Virus record (IMG/VR): IMGVR_UViG_3300006128_000019
Span: 1 to 47,772 of that record
Length of the DNA stretch: 47,772 nt
Source of the DNA: a virus
Direction: 5' to 3' (one strand)
The translations under genes were made by a program, and so were the position numbers. The notes beneath the pieces are model-generated. The model saw nothing but the letters and a program-made list of their open reading frames with translations, was not told the DNA's origin and ran no database searches. How positions within the stretch are numbered: position 1 is the first letter of the stretch; each line of letters opens with the position of its first letter. Positions 2,744 through 37,394 of the stretch are shown one piece after another.

Positions 2744-3187
2744 TTATTTTTTTAAATCAAAACCACCTAGATTTAGTTTTTCTCTTGTCTTACTTACAGT
2801 CTTTTCAACCACTTTCTTTTGATTGTCTGAAAGCATAACTAATTTATTTAATACTTCTATTTCAGTAAATAAAACTTTTGCGGGGTCATAATAAACTAAC
2901 AATAAAACTTCTTTTTGGCCAGCTCTATTTTTAAGCAAATAAGCATAACATTGTTTTAATTCAATTAAATGTGGAGGTTGTGTATAAGTAATAACTTGGT
3001 CTGCTTTTTGAAATACTTCTATTGCTCTACCGATTGTATCTGTATCATTTAATTCAGATTTGAAACCACTATTGTGAGTATAAATGTCATTTGCAAAAAA
3101 ACAATGTGTATCTTCAACACATATATCAATAGTTTCTTGTTCACCTAATAATTCAATACTTTCAATTTCTGACCATTCTAAATTCAT
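2744..3187 (-). CDS. Replicative DNA helicase (T4 gp41/DnaB-like), C-terminal fragment preceded by C-terminal split intein
   Basis: The first 39 residues are a C-terminal intein half: EIESIELLGEQETIDI, then CFFANDIYTHN. These are intein blocks F and G, with terminal His-Asn and a +1 Ser. The remaining 108 residues, starting SGFKSEL, are the C-terminal end of a hexameric helicase that completes the 363-residue N-extein encoded at 4276-5631. After trans-splicing the helicase would be about 471 residues, close to T4 gp41 (475). The ATG at 3187 lies 12 bases after the endonuclease stop and gives the compact C-intein usual in this class. An ATG at 3223, which overlaps the endonuclease gene, would add 12 lysine-rich residues. 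Confidence 0.88.
   Translation of the reverse strand: MNLEWSEIESIELLGEQETIDICVEDTHCFFANDIYTHNSGFKSELNDTDTIGRAIEVFQKADQVITYTQPPHLIELKQCYAYLLKNRAGQKEVLLLVYYDPAKVLFTEIEVLNKLVMLSDNQKKVVEKTVSKTREKLNLGGFDLKK
3071..3187 (-). other. Split intein, C-terminal half (about 39 residues)
   Basis: Residues 1-39 of the C-fragment end in ANDIYTHN, with splice junction HN/S. Length and sequence resemble the C halves of the gp41-1 and gp41-8 split inteins described from marine metagenomes. Catalytic His-Asn and the nucleophilic +1 Ser are all present, so it should be splicing-competent. Confidence 0.88.
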
Positions 3188-3198
3188 ATATTTATTTT

Positions 3199-4239
3199 TT
3201 AATTTTTTAAAAATTCTAAACATTTTAATAATGTTTGTAAACTATTTTCTTTATATTCTTTTTCAAAAATATGTAAAACTTTATAACCTCTTTTTTCTAA
3301 TTCTTCTTTTTTAATTTTATCTCTTTCAATTTGTTCTGGTTTTTTATGCCAATAATTACCTTGAAATTCAATTATATGATTATGACTTTTAAAATCTAAA
3401 AAACAAAATTTATAATTTTCTAATCCTAATCTTACCCAATATTCACCATTTAATTCAGCGAAATAAGTATGGCTTTTATCGCTTAATTGTTCATAAATTT
3501 CCCAGAATAATTTTTGAGAAATTTTACTATAACCTTTTTTAAGAAAGTTTTTTAAACCTTTCATACAAGCATCTAACCAATTTTGATATTTCTCTTTTCC
3601 TAATTCTTTACCATATTTTTCAATAAAACATTGTAAACTTGTTCTAAAACCTTCCGATTGTTTTTTTGAATATTCATTAAAACGTTTTGTTCCATCTTCT
3701 TCCCCATATTTTTTAATAAATGCTTTTTTAGAAGTATGATTCATTGAACTTAAATACTTTTCATGTTCTTCTTCCCAATTTGTAAAATTATCTTTAAAAT
3801 ATTCTATAGAAAATCTATATTTCTGTCTATTACTTTTTTTAAACCATGTTTCTTCACCTTTTTCTTTTCCATATTTATTAATTAAACTTTCCAAAGTTAA
3901 TCCATTATTTTGTTTTATACCTAATTCTTTTCTTTTTTTATAAGCTAATTTTCTATCATTTTGGTATAAATCCCATTTTTTATTTCCTTCTTCAAAGCCA
4001 TAACGAATAATCATATTTTCTCTTGAAAGTTTAAATTTTTCTTTTTTCTTTTTTTCACATAATTCATTACCTTTTTCAATACCATATAAAATATGGTATT
4101 TTTTCTTATAATAAGGTTTTTGTCGTTCTTCTTGGCTTAATAAACTTATTTGTTCAATTCTACTTTGTATTTCAAATTCATCACTAAAATTTTCTTTAAT
4201 AATGTCAATGTACTTTTTTAATTTTTGTTTGTTCAGCAT
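3199..4239 (-). CDS. Free-standing homing endonuclease (Vsr-like/EDxHD type) inside the fractured helicase gene
   Basis: This 346-residue protein sits between the two halves of the split-intein helicase. The C-terminal ~80 residues (FLDFKSHNHIIEFQGNYWH, then RDKIKKEELEKRGYKVL) look like the very-short-patch-repair-like nuclease fold that defines the EDxHD homing endonucleases of 'fractured' phage genes. The N-terminal two thirds carry about five spaced copies of a (K/R)YGxExGxxxW-like motif, near residues 52, 83, 119, 171 and 204, probably DNA-binding repeats. It would cut intein-less alleles and spread the split locus. Its stop lies just before the C-fragment start. It is very lysine-rich. 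Confidence 0.8.
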   Translation of the reverse strand: MLNKQKLKKYIDIIKENFSDEFEIQSRIEQISLLSQEERQKPYYKKKYHILYGIEKGNELCEKKKKEKFKLSRENMIIRYGFEEGNKKWDLYQNDRKLAYKKRKELGIKQNNGLTLESLINKYGKEKGEETWFKKSNRQKYRFSIEYFKDNFTNWEEEHEKYLSSMNHTSKKAFIKKYGEEDGTKRFNEYSKKQSEGFRTSLQCFIEKYGKELGKEKYQNWLDACMKGLKNFLKKGYSKISQKLFWEIYEQLSDKSHTYFAELNGEYWVRLGLENYKFCFLDFKSHNHIIEFQGNYWHKKPEQIERDKIKKEELEKRGYKVLHIFEKEYKENSLQTLLKCLEFLKN

Positions 4240-4275
4240 TAATTTTATTTTTAATTACTGTTGCAAACAAAGTTT

Positions 4276-5631
4276 TTATTTCGTTTGTAGTTTGAAACCT
4301 ATATCCATTCCTGATTCTAAAGAATATAAACCTTTATCGGTTGGAAATTCATGTTTTGCAGAACAAATAATTTCTTTACCATTTTTTAATTTTATTTTAT
4401 AAACTGCTTGTTTTTCAATTGGGAATTTTTTAATTATTTTTTTATAACCTTCTTTTGTTAAAATTTTATCACCTTCATTTACATATTGTATTTCAATTTT
4501 CCCTTTATCTTCAATTTCAACAATTGTTTTTAAATCAAGACACCGATTAGTTTGAAAAACCGCATATCCAGGTATTTTTTCTTCCTTTAATAAATCTTTT
4601 AATTCTTCAGTAAGTATTTCATATTTTTCATTATCATCTTTAGCTCTATAACCTTTAGGTAGTTTAAGTTGATTTAAACCGTCAATACAAATTAAATCTG
4701 GGAAAAACCCTAAAGACTTACAATATGCTATTTGAATTTTTATATTTGCTAAAGTCGCATTTCTTGCTTTATCTTCTACTACTTTAAAATTTGCAAAAGT
4801 TTCATCTTTTAATCTTTCAATCGCATTTTTTTCATTATTTGGAATATCATTTCTTTCAACATCTAATAACCCAGCTAAAACTTTTTCCATAATTACTTCA
4901 GCAGATTCTTCATAAGTAAAATATAAAACATTTTTACCTTTAAAAGCAGCATCACGAGCAATTGCTGCTAAGTTATTACTTTTTCCAAAATTAGAAGGTG
5001 CTACAATAATACATAATTCTCCTTCAGTCATTCCTTTACCTTTATTTATATTTAAAGTAAAAGTCGGGAATAAACTTTCCACGAAAGAATTATATTTTCT
5101 TTTGTCAAATACTTTCTTTAAATCTTCTCGTAAATCTAAAATTCTAGCACTTTCTAAATTTGACTTCATATAAGATTCAAATGAAAGTTTTTTCGCATCT
5201 AAAAAATTTCCTTGTTTTAATGCTTGGACAATTTTTTCATTTTCAGCCAAAGCATATTTTGTAAAACAGAAAGTATTGGTTTGTTCTTCAATAAAATCTT
5301 TATTTTCTAATTGGACTTCTTCAATATTTTTTAATAGTTTATCATAAACTATCATTTTCTCCCCAGCATTTGTAAGTAATATTTTTATATCATCAAAAGT
5401 TGGGGAGGCATGATATTTACCATAATATTCTTGGATTGTTTTAAAAATATTTCTCAAATAAATATCTGAAAAATAAATATCTTTAAGTGTATTGATAATT
5501 GAATAAGTAAAAACTCTATCTTTTATTAATAATGAAATTAATTTTAATTGAAATTCTTTCCCATACTTAGAAAAATCCTTTGCTTCAATAATAAAACTGT
5601 TTTCTTTTGTGCTAATTTTTTCTTCATTCAT
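4276..5631 (-). CDS. Replicative DNA helicase (T4 gp41/DnaB-like), N-terminal fragment fused to N-terminal split intein
   Basis: Residues 1-363 are the N-extein: an N-terminal helical domain, a Walker A variant APSNFGKSN near 211-219, Walker B LICIDGLNQL near 320-330, and the glutamine/arginine motif VFQTNR at 358-363. Residues 364-451 are an N-intein beginning CLDLKT, with a block-B-like ICSAKHEFPT. The helicase unwinds DNA at the fork with the primase at 21541. The split falls exactly in the conserved QxNR (H4) motif, so neither half can work alone. The missing piece is encoded at 2744-3187. The 36-base gap to the endonuclease gene holds no other feature. Confidence 0.9.
   Translation of the reverse strand: MNEEKISTKENSFIIEAKDFSKYGKEFQLKLISLLIKDRVFTYSIINTLKDIYFSDIYLRNIFKTIQEYYGKYHASPTFDDIKILLTNAGEKMIVYDKLLKNIEEVQLENKDFIEEQTNTFCFTKYALAENEKIVQALKQGNFLDAKKLSFESYMKSNLESARILDLREDLKKVFDKRKYNSFVESLFPTFTLNINKGKGMTEGELCIIVAPSNFGKSNNLAAIARDAAFKGKNVLYFTYEESAEVIMEKVLAGLLDVERNDIPNNEKNAIERLKDETFANFKVVEDKARNATLANIKIQIAYCKSLGFFPDLICIDGLNQLKLPKGYRAKDDNEKYEILTEELKDLLKEEKIPGYAVFQTNRCLDLKTIVEIEDKGKIEIQYVNEGDKILTKEGYKKIIKKFPIEKQAVYKIKLKNGKEIICSAKHEFPTDKGLYSLESGMDIGFKLQTK
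4279..4542 (-). other. Split intein, N-terminal half (88 residues)
   Basis: It starts at Cys364 of the N-fragment (R/CLDLKT) and ends at the gene's stop codon. It contains KNGKEIICSAKHEFPT, a block-B-like histidine region. The CLDLKT start, the EIICS...H.FPT spacing and the 88-residue length match the N half of the gp41-1 split intein as I recall it. Confidence 0.88.
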
Positions 5632-5645
5632 AATTATTTATTTTT

Positions 5646-6689
5646 TTAATATTTTAATGGTAAATGATTTTTAACAAACTTAAAAGAACTTAACCATACA
5701 TCATCATTAAAATTTCTGTATAATTTTCCAAAACTTGTTTTAAACATTTTTACTTTTGCTGCCATTAATGAAAGTTTATTAATTTTTTGTTCTTCAAGTT
5801 GAATTTTAACAATTTCTCTTTGTTCTTCATTAATAGAATTTTCATCTAATTTCATTAAAGCATAAGCTAGATTCATGTCATCTTCTAACAATAAAGTTTT
5901 AGCTATTGCATTTTTTTCTCTTGTTTTAAATTCATCTGTTTTAAGCGATTTAATCAGTTCTAAAAACTCTTTAATATCTTTACATTCATTTTCTAATAAC
6001 ATTGAATTAAAGCAGTTAAAAGTGTCTTCTCCAACGCCTTTAATACCTTTCACTTTATCTCCTTTGTCACCTAACATAATTTTTCTGAAAATAAAATTTG
6101 AAGGTTTTATTTTAAATTCATCCTCAATTTCTTTTATCCCATATAATTTCTTTTCTCTCCAACGATACACAAATATTCCAGGTTGTATTAACTGTAAATA
6201 ATCTCTATCATTGGCAATTATAATTACATCAAATTCATCTTTGTTTTTTAATGCCATATTTGCTATTACATCATCAGCTTCAGCATAAGGAACCATTAAC
6301 ATTGTTATAGGTAAAAGTTTTATAAATTCAAATATTTTTATCATTTGATTTTGATAAGCACCCTCTACACCATATACTATATTATCTTCCCCTTCCATAA
6401 TTTCTACTTTACTTTCCCTCTTTTTTATAATTCTTCCATTTTTATAATCGGGATAAATTTGCCTTCTTCTTTCACCAGCTTCTGGGCCATCTAAATTAAA
6501 AATAATTTTTGTTGGTTTAAATTTTTCTGTCCATATTCTTATTAAATTCATTGTAGTAAGATATACTCCAATTGGATAAGTATTATGGTCAACTATTGCA
6601 TTTACTGCTGGTAAAGAATTTTGTGCGATGATGACTCCTAAACCGTCTATCATTAAAAGTCTAGGTTTACTACTTAATTGTTCACTCAT
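5646..6689 (-). CDS. 5'-3' exonuclease / flap endonuclease (T4 RNase H-like)
   Basis: Expected to remove RNA primers and 5' flaps during lagging-strand synthesis. The protein (347 residues) opens with LLMIDGLGVI (metal-binding Asp), has the acidic cluster YAEADDVIA near residue 137 followed by IIANDRDYLQLI, and the helix-hairpin-helix region GDKGDKVKGIKGVGE near 206-220. These are the hallmarks of the PIN-fold FEN family. It lies 14 bases upstream of the helicase N-fragment in a replication operon, parallel to T4 RNase H working with gp41/gp32. Confidence 0.88.
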   Translation of the reverse strand: MSEQLSSKPRLLMIDGLGVIIAQNSLPAVNAIVDHNTYPIGVYLTTMNLIRIWTEKFKPTKIIFNLDGPEAGERRRQIYPDYKNGRIIKKRESKVEIMEGEDNIVYGVEGAYQNQMIKIFEFIKLLPITMLMVPYAEADDVIANMALKNKDEFDVIIIANDRDYLQLIQPGIFVYRWREKKLYGIKEIEDEFKIKPSNFIFRKIMLGDKGDKVKGIKGVGEDTFNCFNSMLLENECKDIKEFLELIKSLKTDEFKTREKNAIAKTLLLEDDMNLAYALMKLDENSINEEQREIVKIQLEEQKINKLSLMAAKVKMFKTSFGKLYRNFNDDVWLSSFKFVKNHLPLKY

Positions 6690-23679: not shown

Positions 23680-24432
23680 ATGGCATTACAATTAATAAAA
23701 CAATTGCCTAACTTTGAAAAAAAAGTTATTGGCGAAAATAAAATTTCTATTGCAGAAATGTTCTGTGATACAATACAAGGTGAAGGTGTGACTTCCGGAG
23801 TTATTAGTACTTTTATAAGAACTAAAGGTTGTACTCTTAATTGTATTTGGTGTGATTCTTTAGAAGTTTGGAGATATGGAAATGAATATAGTTTTGAAGA
23901 AATTTTTGAATTATTTGAATCTGTTGATTTAATAAATAAATTTAAAAATGGACAAAATTTAATTTTAACAGGAGGGTCTCCTCTTAAACAACAAATACAA
24001 TTATATAATTTTATTTCTTCGTTTATAATTAAATACGGATTTAAACCTACTATTCAAGTAGAAAATGAAGCTGTTTTAATGGCAACTCCTGAATTTGAAT
24101 CTATAGTTGATGTTTGGAATAATTCCCCAAAATTATCTAATTCAGAAATGAAAGAAAATATTAGATTTAAACCTTTAGTAATTTCTAGACTATCACAATT
24201 AAAAAATTCATGGTTTAAATTTGTTATTTCTAGAAAAGAAGATTGGGAGGAAATTGAAAAAACATATTTACCTTTAATAAATAAAAATCAAATTATATTA
24301 ATGCCAGAAGGTATTACTCAAGAAGACTTAAATAAAAATAGAAAGTTTGTAGCCGATTTAGCAATTGAAAATCAAGTAAGATTTAGTGATAGACTACATA
24401 TTACTCTTTGGAATAAAAAAACAGGCGTCTAA
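23680..24432 (+). CDS. queE: 7-carboxy-7-deazaguanine synthase (radical SAM)
   Basis: Converts 6-carboxytetrahydropterin to 7-carboxy-7-deazaguanine, the committed step toward preQ0 and queuosine. The radical-SAM cluster is CTLNCIWC (Cys51, 55, 58), preceded by the QueE-typical FCDTIQGEGVTSG; LTGGSPL is the downstream SAM-binding loop. Length 250 is normal. In phages this pathway often makes deazaguanine-modified DNA. FolE2 at 39091 supplies the first pathway step, but no QueC, QueD or Tgt/DpdA is visible here. Confidence 0.9.
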   Translation: MALQLIKQLPNFEKKVIGENKISIAEMFCDTIQGEGVTSGVISTFIRTKGCTLNCIWCDSLEVWRYGNEYSFEEIFELFESVDLINKFKNGQNLILTGGSPLKQQIQLYNFISSFIIKYGFKPTIQVENEAVLMATPEFESIVDVWNNSPKLSNSEMKENIRFKPLVISRLSQLKNSWFKFVISRKEDWEEIEKTYLPLINKNQIILMPEGITQEDLNKNRKFVADLAIENQVRFSDRLHITLWNKKTGV

Positions 24433-31422: not shown

Positions 31423-31495
31423 GACTTCATAACTCAATTGATAGAGTATTCCACTTTTAATGGAAAGGTTGCAAGTTTGAATCTCGCTGGAGTCA
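31423..31495 (+). tRNA. tRNA-Lys(TTT)
   Basis: 73 nt: acceptor GACTTCA/TGGAGTC (one GU), D-arm CTC/GAG, anticodon arm TTCCA-CTTTTAA-TGGAA with anticodon TTT, T-loop TTTGAAT with one mismatch in the stem, discriminator A, no encoded CCA. Confidence 0.88.
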
Positions 31496-31520
31496 CAATA
31501 ACAGTTCTTTTAAATAAAAT

Positions 31521-31591
31521 ACGAGTTTGGTGCAATGGTAGCATACGGGTCTCCAAAACCTTTGATATTAGTTCGACCCTAATAACTCGTG
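31521..31591 (+). tRNA. tRNA-Trp(CCA)
   Basis: 71 nt: acceptor ACGAGTT/AACTCGT, anticodon loop CTCCAAA with CCA in the middle, T-arm ATTAG-TTCGACC-CTAAT, discriminator G, no encoded CCA tail. Confidence 0.88.
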
Positions 31592-31603
31592 CAACATAAA
31601 TTT

Positions 31604-31675
31604 GGTGCGATGGATGAGCGATATAATCAACGGCGTGAAGACCCGTTAAGGTGGGTTTAACTCCCACTCGTACCA
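31604..31675 (+). tRNA. tRNA-Phe(GAA)
   Basis: 72 nt: acceptor GGTGCGA/TCGTACC (one GU), anticodon loop GTGAAGA with GAA, T-arm GTGGG-TTTAACT-CCCAC, discriminator A, no encoded CCA. The 31:39 pair is C-C. Confidence 0.82.
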
Positions 31676-31707
31676 CTAAAAAAATTATAAAAAATGAAAA
31701 AAATATT

Positions 31708-31746
31708 TGACAACTTGTAAAACTGAAAATTTACAAAAATGTGTCA
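31708..31746 (+). promoter_or_regulatory. Hairpin enclosing the start codon of the 31739 gene
   Basis: TGACA/TGTCA (outer) and TTGTAAA/TTTACAA (inner) pair across the ATG at 31739, which falls between the two stems. This could hide the start or protect the mRNA end created by tRNA-Phe processing just upstream. Confidence 0.4.
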
Positions 31747-32014
31747 CAGAAAAAATTGCGTAGAATATGTTGAAACTTCTAATAGAAGAGTTCATAAGAT
31801 TATACATATAAAAAAAGTAACTTCTTGTTGCATGAAATGTGCAATAAGGTGTAGAAGAGATTATTATTGTGTTTCTACAGTTGATAGACGACAATCAAAT
31901 TTTCCTTCTTGGAAATTAACTTCTAAGAATCAAAAGCAATGGATGTGGAAAAAATGTAGAATTAAAGAAAGTAAAAATTCAAACGGTTGGAATTTTAAAG
32001 ATATCGTTTGGTAG
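31739..32014 (+). CDS. Small cysteine-rich basic protein, 91 aa
   Basis: Cysteines cluster as C2, C7, CCMKC near 30-34, C38, C44 and C73, with many Arg/Lys residues, suggesting a small metal-binding, nucleic-acid-contacting protein. Family not recognised. It is embedded between tRNA-Phe and tRNA-Cys. It could be a non-coding spacer, but the frame stays open over the whole gap between the two tRNAs. Confidence 0.5.
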   Translation: MCHRKNCVEYVETSNRRVHKIIHIKKVTSCCMKCAIRCRRDYYCVSTVDRRQSNFPSWKLTSKNQKQWMWKKCRIKESKNSNGWNFKDIVW

Positions 32015-32021
32015 AAGAAAA

Positions 32022-32097
32022 GACCAGGTTGTCAATGTTGCGAAAGGCACCAATCTGCAAAATTGGTTTAACAAGGGTTGAATTCCCTTCCTGGTCT
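32022..32097 (+). tRNA. tRNA-Cys(GCA)
   Basis: 76 nt: acceptor GACCAGG/CCTGGTC, anticodon arm CCAAT-CTGCAAA-ATTGG with GCA, T-arm AAGGG-TTGAATT-CCCTT, discriminator T (usual for tRNA-Cys), no encoded CCA. Confidence 0.88.
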
Positions 32098-32102
32098 CAA
32101 AT

Positions 32103-36215: not shown

Positions 36216-37394
36216 ATGACGTTAGATTTAAACAAAATTAAAAATTCGCAAGTAATAAAAAATTTACAAACTAAAGGTGAAGTATTTTTAATTGGTGGTG
36301 TTGTACGTGATTTTTTAATGAAAAAACCTTGTAAGGATATTGATATTATTGTAAGGTTAATTCCTATTGAAGAATTAATAAAAATTTTAAAACTTACAGG
36401 TAAAGTTGATTTAGTTGGTGAAAGTTTTGGCGTTATTAAATATATTGATAATGAAATAGAACTCGATATAGCCCTTCCTCGCAAAGATTTTTTATTACTA
36501 GGAGAAAAAGGCCACAAAGCAATAGATGCTCAATCAGACCCATATTTATCATTAGAAAGCGATTTATATAGAAGGGATTTTACAATGAATTCAATCGCAA
36601 TGACTTTAGAAGGTAAAATTATTGACCCTTTTGGTGGTTGGGAATCAATATTTGATAAAAAAATAAATTGTACTAATCCTAATTCTTTTATTGAAGACCC
36701 ATTAAGAATTTTAAGAGCATTACAATTTTCATTAAGATTTGATTTTGATTTAGGATTTAGAACTGAAGAACTTATTTTTTCAAATAAAGAAAAACTTTAT
36801 GATATCCCTGCTGAAAGAATTACTATGGAATTTGAAAAAATTCTTAAAGTTGGAATTCTAAGTGAAAAAATCTTTTCTCTTTTTAATGAATTAGAAATCA
36901 CAAATATTATTTTTGGTAATAATATTGAAATAAAAATTACAAGTGGAATTACAGTTAAAAAATTATCTGAATTATTTAATTGTATTTATGATATTAATTC
37001 TATTACTCAAATCGAAGAAATAAAAAATAAATTTAAAATCAGCACAGAAACTGAAAGAGAATTAAAAGCTTATTTGTTTTTTAAAGAAAGAAATGATATC
37101 GAAAATCCCGGTTATCGTGCATTTAAAGCGATAGAAATTGCAAAGGATACAACTTTATATGATTCACCTTTTATCCTTGGTAATGGTACTATAAATCAAT
37201 TTTTAAAGTATAATTATCCATTTACTATTAACGATTTACAAATCAATGGTAATGAAATTATGGAATTCTTTAATTTAAAAGGAAAAGAAATTGGGGATGC
37301 AAAAGAAAATTTAATTAAAGACATTTTTGATGGACATATCAAAAACAATAAAAGGGAATTATTTCAAACACTAAAAGATAAAATTAAAATATAA
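36216..37394 (+). CDS. cca: CCA-adding tRNA nucleotidyltransferase
   Basis: Adds or repairs the 3' CCA of tRNAs, all of which lack encoded CCA in this window. The class II nucleotidyltransferase head is visible: LIGGVVRDFL (GG at 27-28, RD at 31-32), DIDIIV (41-46), the RRDFTMNSIA motif near 118-127, then DPLRILRALQF and the AERITMEFEK specificity region. Length 392 is normal. Poly(A) polymerase is a possible alternative because the families overlap, but the tRNA context favours CCA addition. It overlaps the ACP-like gene by one base. Confidence 0.88.
   Translation: MTLDLNKIKNSQVIKNLQTKGEVFLIGGVVRDFLMKKPCKDIDIIVRLIPIEELIKILKLTGKVDLVGESFGVIKYIDNEIELDIALPRKDFLLLGEKGHKAIDAQSDPYLSLESDLYRRDFTMNSIAMTLEGKIIDPFGGWESIFDKKINCTNPNSFIEDPLRILRALQFSLRFDFDLGFRTEELIFSNKEKLYDIPAERITMEFEKILKVGILSEKIFSLFNELEITNIIFGNNIEIKITSGITVKKLSELFNCIYDINSITQIEEIKNKFKISTETERELKAYLFFKERNDIENPGYRAFKAIEIAKDTTLYDSPFILGNGTINQFLKYNYPFTINDLQINGNEIMEFFNLKGKEIGDAKENLIKDIFDGHIKNNKRELFQTLKDKIKI

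What the first reader, a model, noticed from the sequence alone, without database searches (positions are those of the whole stretch)
2744..5631. Fractured replicative helicase: natural split intein plus free-standing homing endonuclease
The helicase is encoded as an N-fragment ending in an 88-residue N-intein (starting CLDLKT) and a C-fragment starting with a ~39-residue C-intein (ending THN/S). A Vsr-like endonuclease gene lies between them. All splice residues are present (Cys1, block-B His, terminal His-Asn, +1 Ser). The break falls in the QTNR motif, so phage replication depends on trans-splicing. This architecture is known from metagenomic 'fractured genes' (gp41-1, gp41-8); here it is in a phage with a probable Bacteroidota host. 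Small, fast split inteins of this class are rare.
Basis: partly seen in the sequence, partly recalled or inferred. Interest (0 to 1): 0.85.

Follow-up and report, generated by a model that had tools for sequence, protein, structure and literature searches.

The report
Phage helicase rejoined by split intein
This phage's replication helicase is encoded in two pieces that a self-splicing protein tag (a split intein) should join, with a DNA-cutting mobility gene sitting between them; the arrangement is real but of a known and not rare kind, and its relatives show it switching between split and unsplit forms and moving between phages.

Summary
A DnaB/gp41-type helicase is split into an N-fragment (363 aa + 88-aa N-intein) and a C-fragment (39- or 51-aa C-intein + 108 aa), with a 346-aa endonuclease gene between them. 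Both intein halves match gp41-1 and the class-1 splicing residues are present. The joined exteins align without a gap at the junction with an intact Flavobacterium-phage helicase. The endonuclease has a C-terminal domain of the I-Bth0305I/Vsr fold behind five YGxExG repeats. This is the known 'fractured gene' arrangement: a new member, not a new kind. By insertion site it corresponds to gp41-8; by sequence it lies in a third clade, apart from gp41-1 and gp41-8. It is not rare: 120 viral contigs encode the N-intein. Relatives add more. Contiguous (cis) and split (trans) versions occur in close phages, and the cis ones are not one lineage (AU p=5e-5). Between two trans alleles, intein plus endonuclease differ at 7% of third positions against 29% in the helicase (p=9e-21), a homing signature. 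A T4-type phage record, ESh36, has a related fractured gp41; leaving out 1,553 bp gives the gene length of its uninterrupted relatives. Splicing and cleavage are inferred. A Bacteroidota host is plausible, unproven.

The parts
4543..5631 (-). Helicase N-extein (363 aa), DnaB/gp41-type replicative helicase, ending ...FQTNR at the H4-like motif
   Evidence: PHROG 19 DnaB-like helicase E=7e-46; Pfam DnaB_C 3e-13; alignment with intact immuto helicase
4279..4542 (-). N-intein, 88 aa (Cys1; block B SAKH; stop codon at 4276-4278)
   Evidence: gp41-1 6qaz E=1.3e-15; 44%/40% identity to gp41-1/gp41-8; clade profile E=2e-34
3199..4239 (-). Endonuclease gene, 346 aa: five YGxExG repeats (residues 52, 80, 123, 178, 209) and a C-terminal nuclease domain
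   Evidence: Repeats; profile hit to 3r3p I-Bth0305I E=5e-5; VIA Z 11.2 to 3r3p and 10.6 to Vsr 1cw0; invariant D282, E291, H298, D307 in 8 relatives
3202..3543 (-). Nuclease domain of the endonuclease (residues about 233-346)
   Evidence: AlphaFold model, pLDDT mostly 80-95 there; fold search range 233-346
3071..3223 (-). C-intein, 51 aa from the first ATG (39 aa from the ATG at 3187), ending ...NDIYTHN
   Evidence: gp41-1 6qaz E=2.4e-5; 54%/53% identity to gp41-1/gp41-8 C-inteins; clade profile E=1.1e-20
2747..3070 (-). Helicase C-extein, 108 aa, starting with +1 Ser (SGFKSEL...)
   Evidence: Collinear with the C-terminal part of the intact immuto helicase
5646..6689 (-). Context: 5'-3' exonuclease gene next to the helicase
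   Evidence: Pfam 5_3_exonuc_N E=5e-21; same neighbour in Flavobacterium phage immuto
315..2615 (-). Context: ribonucleotide reductase gene (class II-like, 766 aa, one ORF) on the other side
   Evidence: PHROG 367 E=2e-63; TIGR02505 E=5e-25, below cut-off

Best explanation
A fractured helicase gene. The N- and C-fragments are translated separately; the two intein halves associate, fold into a gp41-1-like HINT domain, and splice the exteins by the class-1 pathway (Cys1 acyl shift, transfer to Ser+1, Asn cyclisation), giving a 471-aa replicative helicase. The endonuclease between them is a homing enzyme of the EDxHD/Vsr-like kind that cuts helicase alleles lacking the element, so that repair copies N-intein, endonuclease and C-intein together. 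Sitting in a fast-splicing split intein at a conserved helicase motif keeps the insertion harmless. Shown here: sequence homology of both halves, complete residue set, collinear exteins, nuclease fold, relatives with the same order, and homing-like transfer among relatives. Inferred: that this copy splices, that the enzyme cuts, and that the phage needs the spliced helicase.
For: Both halves homologous to gp41-1 with Cys1, SxxH block B, Asp in block F, THN and Ser+1. Contiguous relatives, 54% identical to the window in the N-half, are predicted to fold like gp41-1 (pLDDT 95; Foldseek TM 0.95, rmsd 0.9 to 6riz). Joined exteins align without a gap at the junction with the intact helicase of a syntenic Flavobacterium phage. 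The window lies in a supported clade (99/97) of inteins at QxNR^S, several with the same endonuclease family. Endonuclease fold as I-Bth0305I/Vsr. Mobility in relatives: L008/L016 third-position differences 37/533 in the island against 133/454 in the helicase, p=9e-21. Window intein 60% identical to L008's while the helicases are 21% identical. Same endonuclease family inside split inteins of terminase and IMP dehydrogenase genes.
Against: No splicing or cleavage was measured. Window helicase and endonuclease are distant from relatives (about 21% and 36% identity), so homing of this very copy is not shown. The catalytic Glu of the EDxHD motif was not identified with certainty. The endonuclease model is only partly confident (pTM 0.40).
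Confidence: 0.9

Rival explanations
1. The intein splices, but the endonuclease is not a homing enzyme for this site: it is a free-standing nuclease lodged in a tolerated gap, or already inactive.
For: Unrelated ORF families (NUMOD3-bearing, DUF7487-bearing, a DNA methylase) occupy the same gap in relatives, and some gaps hold only remnants or broken frames (L004, L025, L057).
Against: Intact 346-aa ORF with invariant D282, E291, H298, D307; fold of a known homing endonuclease; endonuclease and intein distances correlate (Mantel r 0.78, p 0.0015, 7 dereplicated loci); transfer signature of the whole island in relatives.
Confidence: 0.15
2. The two helicase pieces work as separate subunits without splicing, and the intein halves are relics.
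For: Genes in pieces that work without splicing are reported for a phage ribonucleotide reductase (cited in PMC10448857).
Against: All splice residues kept in both halves and across 60+ relatives with the same ends; contiguous relatives keep the same intein.
Confidence: 0.04
3. Assembly or annotation artefact: the true gene is contiguous or the insert comes from another genome.
For: Metagenomic record; no reads available here.
Against: The same N-intein / endonuclease / C-intein order in many independent contigs, in a phage isolate record, and in published fractured genes (PMC7891396; PMC6892783).
Confidence: 0.01

Closest known systems
gp41-8 split intein (metagenomic fractured gp41 helicase)
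   Same: Insertion after QxNR and before Ser; small split intein; 40% (N) and 53% (C) identity.
   Different: Separate supported clade on the tree; endonucleases at gp41-8-like loci are partly of another family (DUF7487).
gp41-1 split intein (PDB 6qaz, 6riz)
   Same: Best solved match of both halves; 44% and 54% identity; SxxH and THN motifs, proposed markers of fast inteins (PMC12245125).
   Different: gp41-1-like loci are inserted three residues further downstream (TTRSGY^SSS) and carry a NUMOD3-type gene in the gap; another clade.
Fractured genes of Dassa et al. 2009 (doi 10.1093/nar/gkp095; cited, text not held)
   Same: Gene split by a split intein with a free-standing EDxHD/Vsr-type homing endonuclease between the halves; the same endonuclease family found here in split terminase and IMPDH loci.
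   Different: New phage and new clade; contiguous EN-less alleles of the same intein are seen in relatives here. Whether the 2009 paper reports such alleles could not be read.
I-Bth0305I (PDB 3r3p), EDxHD homing endonuclease
   Same: C-terminal nuclease domain fold and weak sequence match.
   Different: I-Bth0305I is intron-associated (3r3p is titled 'mobile intron protein'); here the gene lies between split-intein halves and has five YGxExG repeats. A large outgroup with repeats before an EDxHD/Vsr-like domain is described in phage introns (PMC12350094).
AceL NrdHF and MIJ3 PolB fractured genes
   Same: Split intein with an intervening endonuclease gene in phage-like DNA (PMC7891396; PMC6892783).
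   Different: Other host genes and nuclease types (GIY-YIG, HNH); AceL NrdHF is class 3.

Membership tests
Class-1 split intein (gp41-1/gp41-8 kind) | Two separate ORFs carrying N- and C-parts of a HINT domain homologous to known inteins | tested here: met
Class-1 split intein (gp41-1/gp41-8 kind) | Cys/Ser1, block-B His, penultimate His, terminal Asn, Cys/Ser/Thr +1 | tested here: met
   Cys1, SAKH, THN, Ser+1 read directly
Class-1 split intein (gp41-1/gp41-8 kind) | HINT fold | tested here: inconclusive
   The two chains could not be folded together; contiguous relatives fold as gp41-1 (TM 0.95)
Class-1 split intein (gp41-1/gp41-8 kind) | Trans-splicing activity | not testable with these tools
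   Needs co-expression
Fractured gene | Essential gene split at an intein, free-standing endonuclease gene between the halves | tested here: met
Fractured gene | Exteins together make one intact protein | tested here: met
   No gap at the junction against the intact immuto helicase
EDxHD (I-Bth0305I-like) homing endonuclease | Vsr-like catalytic fold | tested here: met
   VIA Z 11.2 to 3r3p, 10.6 to 1cw0, rmsd 2.4 and 1.8
EDxHD (I-Bth0305I-like) homing endonuclease | E-D-x-H-D active-site residues | tested here: inconclusive
   D282, E291, H298, D307 invariant in 8 relatives; not mapped one by one on the published motif
EDxHD (I-Bth0305I-like) homing endonuclease | Site-specific cleavage that drives homing | not testable with these tools
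   Indirect support only: transfer signature among relatives
gp41-8 intein allele | Insertion at QxNR^S of the helicase | tested here: met
gp41-8 intein allele | Groups with gp41-8 on the tree | tested here: not met
   Window in a separate 16-row clade, 99/97

The most novel reading that the evidence does not exclude
In this helicase intein family the split state is reversible: a fast mini-intein repeatedly passes between a contiguous form and a form fractured by a homing endonuclease, different nuclease families use the same gap, and the whole island spreads between distant phages. The split would then be one phase of a homing cycle, not an end state.
Probability: 0.45. Interest if true: 0.65.

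Novelty: new member of a known kind. Interest (0 to 1): 0.45.

Why it matters
The window itself adds a further clade to the small fast split inteins used in protein engineering, with a new insertion-compatible pair of halves. More important is what the relatives offer: near-identical contiguous and fractured alleles of one intein, a measured transfer signature, and a T4-type phage record (ESh36) whose gp41 is fractured while hundreds of close relatives are not.

Tried and rejected
Single-protein search with the N-fragment found no relatives in viral contigs; the intein alignment did. The C-extein and C-intein together found nothing among phage records. Rfam found no intron in the region at gathering thresholds, only tRNAs, so an RNA intron was rejected. 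The genome collection gave two weak hits only. Dassa 2009 is not held. Grouping all cis inteins as one lineage was rejected (AU p 5e-5), but the five in the closest subclade could be one lineage (p 0.31), so the parsimony count of five switches is softened to at least three. Direction of the switches (fracture or mending) is not resolved, as trees are unrooted. 'Top hits' to repeat proteins (Cake, Ika) were discarded as chance matches of repetitive designs. The first attempt to hand in this report failed because of malformed fields.

Full report
OBSERVATION. On the minus strand the window holds three ORFs in operon order: 5631-4276, 4239-3199 and 3223-2744. The first is a DnaB/gp41-type helicase (PHROG 19, E=7e-46) that runs to ...FQTNR and then into CLDLKT...QTK and a stop. 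The last starts with ...NDIYTHN and continues SGFKSELNDTDTIGR. The window is the whole of a 47,772-base virus record, class linear.

INTEIN. The N-half matches gp41-1 at 1.3e-15 and the C-half at 2.4e-5. Profiles without the window give 2e-34 and 1.1e-20. Cys1, block-B SAKH, THN and Ser+1 are present. SxxH and THN were proposed as marks of fast inteins (PMC12245125); speed here is an inference.

EXTEINS. Joined, the two exteins align with the intact helicase of Flavobacterium phage immuto with no gap at the junction, 24% identity. That phage has the same neighbours: recombinase, exonuclease, helicase, ribonucleotide reductase. The break is in the QxNR motif; DnaB inteins at the corresponding motif are known (own knowledge).

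ENDONUCLEASE. 346 aa, five YGxExG repeats, then a nuclease domain. Pfam and NCBIfam give sub-threshold matches to MTES_1575, DUF559 and Vsr. A profile of eight relatives hits I-Bth0305I (3r3p) at 5e-5. The model's C-terminal domain aligns to 3r3p (Z 11.2, rmsd 2.4), 3hrl (Z 11.2) and Vsr 1cw0 (Z 10.6, rmsd 1.8). Foldseek E-values alone are weak (0.15), so the fold call rests on both results together. Repeats followed by an EDxHD/Vsr-like domain are described for phage intron endonucleases (PMC12350094).

RELATIVES. 120 viral contigs encode the N-intein; 80 were loaded. Of 74 with both halves found, 61 are split (29 with a NUMOD3-type gene, 15 with the window's endonuclease family, 7 with a DUF7487-type gene, 10 with none of these) and 13 are contiguous; many are near-identical, so these are not independent counts. 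Two insertion sites three residues apart are used. The tree puts the window in a clade of 16 (99/97) apart from gp41-1 and gp41-8, on a long branch.

CIS AND TRANS ALLELES. L013 (contiguous, 129 aa) and L008 (split, 1,675 bp between splice sites) share the same junction and 94% of N-intein bases; the split allele has a stop and the endonuclease gene where the contiguous one has a five-residue linker. All cis rows as one clade are rejected (p 5e-5), the closest five are not (p 0.31).

MOBILITY. L008 and L016: third-position differences 29% in the helicase, 7% in the N-intein, 6% in the endonuclease; island against flank p=9e-21; other pairs agree. Cis pairs show a weaker excess in the same direction, so the intein itself also moves or is more constrained. 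The window's intein is 60% identical to L008's while the helicases are 21% identical. Endonuclease distances follow intein distances (r 0.78, p 0.0015, seven loci). The same endonuclease family sits in split inteins of terminase and IMPDH genes.

ESH36. The record of Shigella phage ESh36 (Tequatrovirus, flagged UNVERIFIED) has gp41 in two pieces with a 332-aa ORF between them. Leaving out 1,553 bp gives 1,428 bp, the same length as the gene in ESh31 and teqskov, with 36 and 39 differences; 599 phage records match, only ESh36 over the full length. Its site (SDIAE^S) differs from both others, and its C-intein ends TKN, not THN, so its splicing needs a test. Its ORF matches the endonuclease profile weakly in the nuclease domain (2.8e-5 in a one-sequence search).

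HOST. No Shine-Dalgarno-like motif in 35 genes, against 8 of 14 in the T4-type region and 1 of 15 in immuto. This fits Bacteroidota but G+C is only 24%, and other genes have mixed nearest hits. Undecided.

VERDICT. Real, well supported, a new member of the fractured-gene kind. The broader cis/trans and homing pattern in relatives raises interest above that of one more example.

Noticed in passing
L099 3882-6862 (ON528746.1 23048-26028): T4-type phage ESh36 has a fractured gp41 helicase with a related intein at a third site and a C-intein ending TKN; annotated only as two helicase pieces and a hypothetical protein.
   Followed up: yes
L045 2423-3283; also L050, L051: A DNA methylase gene (N6_N4_Mtase, E 2e-29) lies between the split-intein halves next to the endonuclease gene.
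   Followed up: partly
L091-L093, L095, L096; L094: The window's endonuclease family sits in fractured terminase genes, split early in the intein, and in a fractured IMP dehydrogenase gene.
   Followed up: partly
L004, L023, L030, L057, L060-L062; L025-L027: Split inteins whose endonuclease is lost, reduced to a remnant, or broken in frame while the split remains.
   Followed up: partly
L028 3590: Contiguous intein with Tyr in place of Cys1, either a sequencing error or a dead copy.
   Followed up: no
L081 1213-2970: A second N-intein-like and C-intein-like pair follows the first, possibly a duplication.
   Followed up: no
window 31423-32098: Cluster of four tRNA genes (Lys, Trp, Phe, Cys).
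   Followed up: no
window 36216-37394 and 23680-24432: tRNA nucleotidyltransferase-like and QueE-like genes in the phage (PHROG E 3e-51 and 5e-47).
   Followed up: no
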